Below are positions 16,433 to 18,400 of a DNA stretch of 64,000 nucleotides, piece by piece (position 1 is the first letter of the stretch; each line of letters begins with the position of its first letter). The notes beneath the pieces were generated by a model. It saw nothing but the letters and a program-made list of their open reading frames with translations, did not search any database and had not been told where the DNA came from. Made by a program: the position numbers and the translations under genes. This stretch comes from Truepera radiovictrix DSM 17093 (GTDB taxonomy: Bacteria; Deinococcota; Deinococci; Deinococcales; Trueperaceae), in the NCBI RefSeq assembly GCF_000092425.1, contig NC_014221.1, forward strand, positions 749,001 to 813,000, written 5' to 3'.

Positions 16433-16690
16433 CGGGCGCGCCTCCCGCGCCGCTCACCCCGCAGTAGGCACCACGAGTTAGGATGCCGTTGGCTGGGGCA
16501 CCTTATCGGCGTCCGTAAGGGAGGGTACGGGGAAGACGCCACCATGGCTTACCGCCTCTTTCGCAAACGCCCCCTAGCAGCGCGCTGGCCACTTAGGGAC
16601 AAAACGTGTAGGCTGTCATGACGCAAACCTATGATGTAACGCTACCTTACCGCGCGGGTGCGGGGGCGGTGTGCTTTGTTTGAGCGAACT
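16433..16690 (-). promoter_or_regulatory. upstream region of the sugar importer operon, with a dyad
   Basis: Non-coding DNA between the importer operon and the IS200/IS605 end. GTAACGCTACCTTAC (16636-16650) is an imperfect dyad with GTAA/TTAC ends that could be a repressor site. No regulator gene of LacI type is nearby, and the insertion element lies immediately upstream. Confidence 0.35.
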
Positions 16691-16830
16691 GTGACATGCT
16701 CCCCAGACTAAAGTCAAGAGCTTCTCAGGCAACGTATGCGTTGACCGCTGCGTTGGCGCCTGATGGGAATGTCCTCCCCAAGATGACCCGTGCCGCCGCT
16801 ACGTCTCGCTGCAACTCACACCCGCACTCG
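16675..16830 (-). ncRNA. probable omega RNA (reRNA) of the TnpB nuclease
   Basis: In this family the guide RNA is made from the 3' end of tnpB and the element right end, and its guide is read from flanking DNA. Here the minus-strand sequence after the tnpB stop folds into a stem (GCTCTTGACT with AGTCTGGGGAGC, about 16697-16721) ending at ATGTCAC. The next bases, read leftwards from 16690 (AGTTCGCTCAAACAAA), would be the guide. The 5' limit is a guess based on known omega RNA lengths. Confidence 0.5.
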
Positions 16831-17840
16831 CACGAGTGCCAGCGTTCAGAGAGCAGCTTCTTGGCAACGCGCCCACAGTCGGGGCAGGTCTGCGAAGTGT
16901 ATTTCGGGTCAACGGCAACCACTCGCTTCTCAGCTTCTTCCGCTTTAGAGGCGAGTATTGCCAGGAACGTTGACCATCCGGCGTCATATACCGACTTGGC
17001 TAGGCGAGTTCGCCCTAACCCTTTGACGTTCAGCGCTTCGTGTGCGATTGAGTCGTGCTTGCGCACGAGTTTGCGCGCCGTCTTGTGGTGGAAGTCTAGG
17101 CGCTGCCTCTTGACTTTGCGGTGCAGCTTGGCAACGCGCTCACGCTGTTTCGCGCGGCGATTGCCCCGATTGCCCCCCCGCTTCTTCCTCGCAAGGCTGC
17201 GCTGTGCCCTTCTCAGCTTCTTCTGCGCCTTGCGGAAGTAGCGGGGCGCGTCTACAAACTCACCATCTGAGGTGATGAGGAAGTGGTTTAGCCCAAGGTC
17301 TATACCGACTTCGGAGCCCGTAGGCCCCTGCGGCCTAGTCTCGACTTCGCAGACGATGACCGCGTACCACTCATCTACCTCGCGCTTGACCGTGAGTGTC
17401 TTAACCGCTCCCTCCAAAGGGCGGTGCAGCTTAACTCGGACGTTACCGATCTTGGGGAGGTACACATGACCGCCGATGGTGCCCTTGTACTGCGGATAGC
17501 AAAAGGAGTCGAAGCGACGCGCCGACTTAAAGCGCGGGTACCCGGGTTTTTCGCCTCGCTTAACCCGACGAAAGAACGCTGCAAACGCCTTGTCCAGGCG
17601 GCGCAAGGTGTCTTGCAGCACTTGGCTGTGAACGTCCTTGTACTCGGGGCGCCCTTCCTTGACCTCTGGCAGCGACACGGCCTGGGCGTGATAGCTGACC
17701 GTGACGCCACGCTTCCGGTAGGCGGTACGGCGCTCCTCAAGGGCGGCGTTGTAGAGTTCGCAGCACCGCGCCAACGTCCAATCCATGCGCTCGGCTTGCG
17801 CCTGAGTCGGATAGAGGCGGTATTTAAAGGCTTTGAGCAT
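16725..17840 (-). CDS. tnpB: RNA-guided nuclease TnpB (OrfB)
   Basis: 371 residues, a full-length TnpB. It begins with the MLKAFKYRLYPT helix-turn-helix start. A RuvC-like domain carries all three acidic residues: D181 in VGIDLGLN, E268 in AHEALNVKGL and D346 in LQRDVAAARVI. A four-cysteine zinc ribbon has CPDC at 319-322 and CEC at 337-339. The intact site suggests an active nuclease. It starts right after tnpA, with the stop of tnpA and ATG of tnpB adjoining. The usual RDxNAA motif reads RDVAAA. Confidence 0.93.
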   Translation of the reverse strand: MLKAFKYRLYPTQAQAERMDWTLARCCELYNAALEERRTAYRKRGVTVSYHAQAVSLPEVKEGRPEYKDVHSQVLQDTLRRLDKAFAAFFRRVKRGEKPGYPRFKSARRFDSFCYPQYKGTIGGHVYLPKIGNVRVKLHRPLEGAVKTLTVKREVDEWYAVIVCEVETRPQGPTGSEVGIDLGLNHFLITSDGEFVDAPRYFRKAQKKLRRAQRSLARKKRGGNRGNRRAKQRERVAKLHRKVKRQRLDFHHKTARKLVRKHDSIAHEALNVKGLGRTRLAKSVYDAGWSTFLAILASKAEEAEKRVVAVDPKYTSQTCPDCGRVAKKLLSERWHSCECGCELQRDVAAARVILGRTFPSGANAAVNAYVA

Positions 17841-18242
17841 CTAGTCTACCTGCTTAGACTTCTGCGCCGCGATGTAGCGCCCGATGATATCAGCGGAGAC
17901 GGACCCGGCAGAGCCGACGTAGAACGCGCTCGTCCACAAATGCCCACGGGCGCGGAGTTCGGGGTAGTCCATGAGCAGCCAGCGGGCCGACGCGCCTTTA
18001 AGGATCTTGGCGATGTCGGAAGGCGACCACTTCGGCGGGGCGGAAAGGAAGACATGGGCGTGGTCAGGCATGATTTCCAGACCGTGAATGACCCAATCGC
18101 GTTCTTTGCAGATGTGCTCGAAAAGCTCTTCAAGTCGCTGCGCCACCGGACCCTTGAGCACGCTACGGCGGTACTTCGGCACGAATACCAGGTGGTAATT
18201 AAGGTTGTGACGCGAGTGCCGCGTAGCACGCTCCAAAGTCAT
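17841..18242 (-). CDS. tnpA: IS200/IS605 single-strand transposase TnpA
   Basis: 133 residues, the normal length for this Y1 HUH transposase. The HUH pair is H61 and H63 in MPDHAHVFLS, and the catalytic tyrosine is Y123 in IIGRYIAAQ. It cuts and joins single-stranded element ends recognised through hairpins. All active residues are present, so transposition may still be possible. It lies just upstream of tnpB in the same orientation. Confidence 0.93.
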   Translation of the reverse strand: MTLERATRHSRHNLNYHLVFVPKYRRSVLKGPVAQRLEELFEHICKERDWVIHGLEIMPDHAHVFLSAPPKWSPSDIAKILKGASARWLLMDYPELRARGHLWTSAFYVGSAGSVSADIIGRYIAAQKSKQVD

Positions 18243-18371
18243 GTGTATATGTAGCGCGAACTAGCCAGCAGTGTCGTCGACTCGTTCGCTGCGCTCACCT
18301 GAGGGATCCTTGTATTCCCGGGTTAAGGGACCGGGATGCAAAAGCCCCTCGGACTATCCACCACTGTAAAT

Positions 18372-18400
18372 CCCCCCTCGACCTGTCAAACCGAGGGGGG
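18372..18400 (-). terminator. hairpin after the second Gfo/Idh/MocA gene
   Basis: CCCCCCTCG (18372-18380) pairs with CGAGGGGGG (18392-18400). On the minus strand it lies just beyond the stop at 18406 and is followed by ATTTAC, a weak T tract. The proposed IS left-end target TTTAC directly abuts it, so the element landed at the foot of this terminator. Confidence 0.5.

What the first reader, a model, noticed from the sequence alone, without database searches (positions are those of the whole stretch)
16675..18371. TnpB element with reconstructable ends, TAM and guide
The pentamer TTTAC abuts the left end and GTCAC closes the right end, so precise excision would restore TTTAC followed by AGTTCGCTCAAAC. 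That joint is exactly TAM plus guide as predicted for TnpB, which would cut it and so promote re-insertion. All catalytic residues of TnpA (H61, H63, Y123) and TnpB (D181, E268, D346) are intact.
Basis: partly seen in the sequence, partly recalled or inferred. Interest (0 to 1): 0.6.

Follow-up and report, generated by a model that had tools for sequence, protein, structure and literature searches.

The report
IS605 element with mismatched left end

Summary
tnpA is 18242-17841 and tnpB 17840-16725; the element proper is 18365-16691. TTTAC is 18370-18366 and the 16-nt guide 16690-16675. Catalytic residues are confirmed. The right end (...GTCAC) is confirmed against dozens of relatives. For the Thermus relative L106, three genomes hold the exact empty site. 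Precise excision would give TTTAC+AGTTCGC..., as stated.

The step "TTTAC is the TAM this TnpB reads" is not supported. (1) In relatives the 4 nt before the left hairpin pair with the target word (AATC/TTAG, AAAG/TTAC, AAAA/TTAT, AAGT/TTAA). Here the site reads GCAT (or CATC, shifted one base), leaving at most one of three pairs with TTAC. (2) The TnpB residues that contact TAM -1 co-vary with that base across relatives (K: G; M/T: C; Tyr+Ala: T). This TnpB has Tyr+Ala, predicting TTTAT. (3) Its right hairpin is the weakest of 68. The copy is unique in the genome. Best reading: an acquired, genetically intact but poorly mobile copy. The TAM -1/residue correlation is the most interesting by-product.

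The parts
18366..18370 (-). left flank word TTTAC, position of the target/TAM
   Evidence: Sequence. 31 nt from the left hairpin, as in Thermaceae relatives (30-32 nt). Last base C is discordant with the left guide and with the TnpB TAM residues.
16691..18365 (-). the insertion sequence proper, 1675 nt
   Evidence: Right boundary from the RE motif conserved in relatives; left boundary by geometry and the TTTA|AG match to relatives, one of which (L106) has its empty site in three genomes. No empty site for the window's own copy.
18336..18339 (-). left guide position G_L: GCAT (CATC if shifted by one base into the stem, 18335-18338)
   Evidence: Four nt 5' of the left hairpin; homologous to AATC in Thermus and Deinococcus relatives.
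18317..18335 (-). left subterminal hairpin IP_L, CCCGG-loop-CCGGG
   Evidence: Inverted repeat, same place as in relatives.
17841..18242 (-). tnpA, Y1 HUH transposase, 133 aa; H61, H63, Y123
   Evidence: Pfam Y1_Tnp 3.6e-37; NCBIfam NF033573 above cut-off; PDB 2f4f, 2ec2, 2xm3 and 2vhg relatives.
16725..17840 (-). tnpB, RNA-guided endonuclease, 371 aa; D181, E268, D346; TAM -1 contact residues Y50 and A54
   Evidence: NCBIfam guided_TnpB 6e-99; ISDra2 TnpB 8bf8 at 5e-52; residue mapping.
16721..16724 (-). right guide G_R GAAG, complementary to TCAC by the IS608 pattern
   Evidence: 54 elements with GAAG/TCAC, 11 with GAAT/TCAA, 2 with GAAA/TCAT.
16698..16721 (-). right hairpin IP_R with TTTA loop, also expected to be the last stem of the guide RNA scaffold
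   Evidence: Folds at -8.9 kcal/mol, the weakest of 68 related right ends; two-nt bulge.
16691..16695 (-). right-end cleavage word GTCAC
   Evidence: Conserved in relatives, divergent after it.
16675..16690 (-). expected guide segment AGTTCGCTCAAACAAA (host DNA)
   Evidence: First 16 nt after the right end, as in ISDra2 (PMC8612924); no RNA evidence.
18372..18400 (-). perfect hairpin just upstream of TTTAC, terminator-like, after the oxidoreductase gene
   Evidence: Inverted repeat CCCCCCTCG...CGAGGGGGG; host DNA, not part of the element.

Best explanation
A single-copy IS605-type transposon with tnpA and tnpB, of foreign base composition, sits between an oxidoreductase gene and a sugar-ABC ATPase gene. 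TnpA would cut single-stranded DNA 3' of a target word at the left end and after GTCAC at the right end; TnpB would carry an RNA made of the tnpB 3' end, the right end and 16 nt of flanking DNA as guide, and cut resealed donor sites. The proteins and the right end fit this working design. The left boundary does not: the left guide does not pair with TTAC, and the TnpB TAM residues predict TTTAT rather than TTTAC. I therefore expect excision to be inefficient or absent and TnpB cutting of the TTTAC joint to be weak at best: an element with intact genes but decayed ends. Shown: sequence, homology, ends in relatives, rule and correlation. Inferred: loss of activity, TAM preference, RNA production.
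For: Families and catalytic residues. Right-end motif in relatives and guide/word complementarity in 68 of 84 (shuffled: 4.2 of 15.4). Empty sites for the Thermus relative L106 in three genomes give TTTTAG|...GTCAC| exactly. IS608 guide/target pairing is established (PMC5934647). Left-end rule in relatives; hits above chance (22 against 1.4 at the strictest threshold). Window left end gives no rule-consistent hit and has only one TTA in the flank, TTTAC. TAM -1 residue correlation: 22 of 26 uncurated non-redundant elements, 0 of 20000 permutations, at least six changes of -1 base on the tree. Weakest right hairpin of 68. Single copy. GC 60% against 69% in neighbours.
Against: Both ORFs are intact, which argues against long decay. 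Left-end mismatches also occur in two other related cases (L090; the duplicated L212/L213), so the rule has exceptions. TnpBs can tolerate a non-cognate -1 base with reduced activity (PMC11043419). No RNA or activity data.
Confidence: 0.6

Rival explanations
1. One reading: a fully active element whose TAM is TTTAC; excision restores TTTAC+AGTTCGC and TnpB cuts it, favouring recovery of the element.
For: Intact catalytic residues; GTCAC with matching right guide; TTTAC at the expected distance; TTAC-class relatives exist in Thermus and Deinococcus.
Against: TTAC-class relatives have a left guide ending in G and Met/Thr at the -1 contact position; the window has neither. Weakest right hairpin. 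No second copy.
Confidence: 0.22
2. The left boundary is misplaced and the true target word lies elsewhere, for example TTTGAC within the upstream hairpin.
For: TGAC pairs with CATC at two of three positions, better than TTAC.
Against: It lies 49 nt from the hairpin, against 15-32 in relatives; only TTTAC occurs at the usual distance and it is followed by AG as in relatives.
Confidence: 0.07
3. The element is immobile because TnpB is now kept for a host role, such as guided regulation or plasmid/phage interference.
For: Intact tnpB beside decayed-looking ends.
Against: RuvC residues are intact, unlike nuclease-dead TnpB-derived regulators (own knowledge); tnpA is intact too; the guide has no other close site in the genome; no orthologous copy in 38 family genomes.
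Confidence: 0.06

Closest known systems
ISDra2 (Deinococcus radiodurans), IS200/IS605 family
   Same: tnpA-tnpB order, HUH/Y1 TnpA, RuvC TnpB, TTTA-loop right hairpin, guide from 3' flank.
   Different: TnpB about 38-40% identical by eye of the alignment (E 5e-52); TAM there TTGAT; here flank TTTAC, predicted TAM TTTAT.
IS608 (Helicobacter pylori)
   Same: Guide/word pairing pattern at the right end (GAAT/TCAA there, GAAG/TCAC here).
   Different: IS608 left guide AAAG matches TTAC; the window has the same word TTAC but guide GCAT/CATC.
IS605-type elements of Thermus/Meiothermus (L105, L106, L109) and Deinococcus (L147, L150, L155)
   Same: TnpB 56-63% and TnpA up to 65% identical; same right-end architecture; left hairpin at the same distance in Thermaceae.
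   Different: Their left guide, target word and TnpB -1 residue agree with each other; in the window they do not.

Membership tests
IS200/IS605 (IS605 type: tnpA + tnpB) | Y1 HUH transposase with HxH and catalytic Tyr | tested here: met
   PF01797, NF033573 above cut-offs; H61, H63, Y123.
IS200/IS605 (IS605 type: tnpA + tnpB) | tnpB with RuvC DED and zinc-ribbon | tested here: met
   PF01385, PF07282, NF040570; D181/E268/D346.
IS200/IS605 (IS605 type: tnpA + tnpB) | subterminal hairpins at both ends, no terminal inverted repeats | tested here: met
   IP_L 18317-18335 and IP_R 16698-16721.
IS200/IS605 (IS605 type: tnpA + tnpB) | right guide complementary to right cleavage word | tested here: met
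   GAAG/TCAC.
IS200/IS605 (IS605 type: tnpA + tnpB) | left guide complementary to left target word | tested here: not met
   GCAT/CATC against TTAC, at most one of three pairs. This affects activity of the copy; homology still places it in the family.
IS200/IS605 (IS605 type: tnpA + tnpB) | insertion without target duplication; precise empty site | tested here: inconclusive
   Shown for relative L106 in three genomes; no empty site found for the window's copy.
active RNA-guided TnpB | guide RNA from the right end with 16-nt guide | not testable with these tools
   Needs small-RNA data.
active RNA-guided TnpB | TAM equals the word at the left flank | tested here: inconclusive
   Residue correlation predicts -1 = T, flank has C; needs a TAM assay.

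The most novel reading that the evidence does not exclude
In this TnpB clade the residue equivalent to ISDra2 S56 (with Y52) sets the last TAM base (Lys: G; Met or Thr: C; Ala with Tyr: T; Gln with Arg: A) and has changed repeatedly in step with the left DNA guide of TnpA, so that transposase target and nuclease TAM co-evolve; the window's copy has fallen out of step.
Probability: 0.55. Interest if true: 0.6.

Novelty: new member of a known kind. Interest (0 to 1): 0.38.

Why it matters
As an element it is ordinary. The comparison it prompted gives a simple, testable rule: one or two TnpB residues predict the last TAM base, and that base tracks the fourth base of the left DNA guide read by TnpA. 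If it holds, TAMs of many TnpBs could be read from sequence, and it would show how two separate recognition systems, DNA pairing and protein contact, stay matched. I found no statement of this rule in the held papers, but the search was limited.

Tried and rejected
Empty site of the window's copy: not in 38 other family genomes; the one same-genus genome keeps the oxidoreductase gene (80%) but not the neighbouring gene order. Guide sites elsewhere: no site within one mismatch of TTTACAGTTCGCTC; 11 sites at two mismatches, 8 for the reversed control. Rfam: no match. Guide-RNA fold: not better than shuffles (z -0.72), so it is no evidence either way. Empty sites for Meiothermus L104 and Deinococcus L147: only one flank found. 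Alternative left word TTTGAC: wrong distance. First automatic right-end scans were noisy; replaced. L212/L213 looked like mobile copies with a mismatched left guide, but they share upstream flank, so they are a duplication. No structure prediction was run.

Full report
What is there. The genome is a single contig of 3,260,398 bases, the length published for Truepera radiovictrix RQ-24 (PMC3072082); the organism name is an inference from that match. On the minus strand, tnpA (18242-17841, 133 aa) is followed directly by tnpB (17840-16725, 371 aa). TnpA is a Y1 HUH transposase and TnpB an RNA-guided endonuclease by curated profiles and by solved relatives. The element's GC content is about 60%, its neighbours' 69%, which suggests acquisition. 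It is the only copy in the genome. Two other IS605-type families are present in the same genome, with three and two copies.

Right end. Downstream of the related tnpB genes, the motif GAAG-hairpin-GTCAC recurs and the sequence then diverges. In IS608 the right cleavage word TCAA is matched by guide GAAT and the left word TTAC by guide AAAG, each just 5' of a hairpin (PMC5934647). These pairs fit a pattern in which word base 1 pairs with guide base 2, word 2 with guide 1, and word 4 with guide 4; I derived this pattern from those sequences. In 84 distinct right ends found near related tnpB genes, guide base 4 is complementary to word base 4 in 68 (54 GAAG/TCAC, 11 GAAT/TCAA, 2 GAAA/TCAT, 1 GAAC/TCAG); shuffled sequence gives 15.4 hits per round of which 4.2 agree. 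The window has GAAG/TCAC. The right end at 16691 is therefore secure. Its hairpin is, however, the weakest of the 68 (-8.9 kcal/mol).

Left end. For the Thermus relative L106 (TnpB 63% and TnpA 61% identical by the searches) I joined its two flanks at TTTTAG and after GTCAC. That joint exists uninterrupted in three other Thermus genomes. So the boundary is exact in the relative: cut after TTTAG, element begins AG (one base of ambiguity to the right). The window has TTTAC followed by AG, 31 nt from the left hairpin, as in the Thermaceae relatives. The left boundary at 18365/18366 is thus likely, by geometry. No empty site of the window's own copy was found.

Left guide. Relatives agree with the pairing pattern: AATC or AAGC with TTAG, AAAG, AATG or AACG with TTAC, AAAA with TTAT, AAGT with TTAA. 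An automatic scan found rule-consistent left ends in 46, 29 and 22 of 136 elements at rising thresholds, against 14.4, 5.1 and 1.4 in shuffled sequence; this scan requires the rule, so it shows excess over chance rather than how often the rule fails. A looser scan that did not require the fourth pair had it in 39 of 85 picks, many of which are wrong picks. The window has GCAT directly before the hairpin (CATC if shifted one base), which leaves at most one of three pairs with TTAC. Two other single cases are also mismatched (L090; L212/L213, a duplication), so exceptions exist.

TAM residues. In the ISDra2 TnpB structure Y52 and S56 contact TAM base -1 (PMC10097598). I mapped these positions in the relatives. 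Without curation, taking the top left-end hit of each element and one per protein cluster, Lys goes with G (9 of 11), Met or Thr with C (4 of 4), Ala with T (8 of 9); 22 of 26 fit the code including Gln/A, against none of 20,000 permutations reaching that. The code was formulated after seeing the data, and relatedness is not removed by the permutation. On a tree, the -1 base changes at least six times, for example from FK/G to AM/C and to FT/C inside the Thermus group and between YA/T and M/C in the Deinococcus group, which lowers the concern about relatedness. Some labels used on the tree were read by homologous position, by me. The window TnpB has Y50/A54, the combination seen with T. This predicts TTTAT, while the flank is TTTAC.

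Interpretation. Two separate readings, the DNA guide and the protein, disagree with TTTAC and with each other (CATC would ask for a word ending in G). With the weak right hairpin and the single copy, decayed ends on a still intact gene pair is the most economical account; I give it 0.6. A non-cognate -1 base lowers but need not abolish TnpB cutting (PMC11043419), so some activity at TTTAC is possible.

Verdict. Ordinary family member, correctly recognised, with ends mostly right and the TAM claim not supported. The by-product, a residue code for TAM base -1 that moves with the transposase's left guide, deserves a direct test. I did not find it in the held papers, a limited search.

Noticed in passing
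L008, L010, L012 (G000:C1, about 603-699 kb) and L013, L014: Two further IS605-type families in the same genome, three and two near-identical copies; copy boundaries give left word TTAT and right end GTCAA.
   Followed up: partly
L019-L024 and G000:C1:2638622-2638984: Seven identical copies of a tnpA-only, IS200-like element of about 573 nt in the same genome; no tnpB.
   Followed up: partly
136 TnpB elements, for example L106, L150, L155, L087, L183, L045: Residues equivalent to ISDra2 TnpB 52/56 co-vary with the last TAM base and with the fourth base of the left guide.
   Followed up: yes
window 18372-18400: A perfect 9-bp hairpin directly before the TTTAC word, like an intrinsic terminator of the oxidoreductase gene; the element sits where its T-tract would be.
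   Followed up: no
L212, L213 (G063): Duplicated element with target word TTTAT but left guide AATC, as if its left end came from a TTAG-type element.
   Followed up: partly
L154, L156: TTAC-class elements that end in GTCAA rather than GTCAC: left-word class and right-word class are not tied.
   Followed up: no
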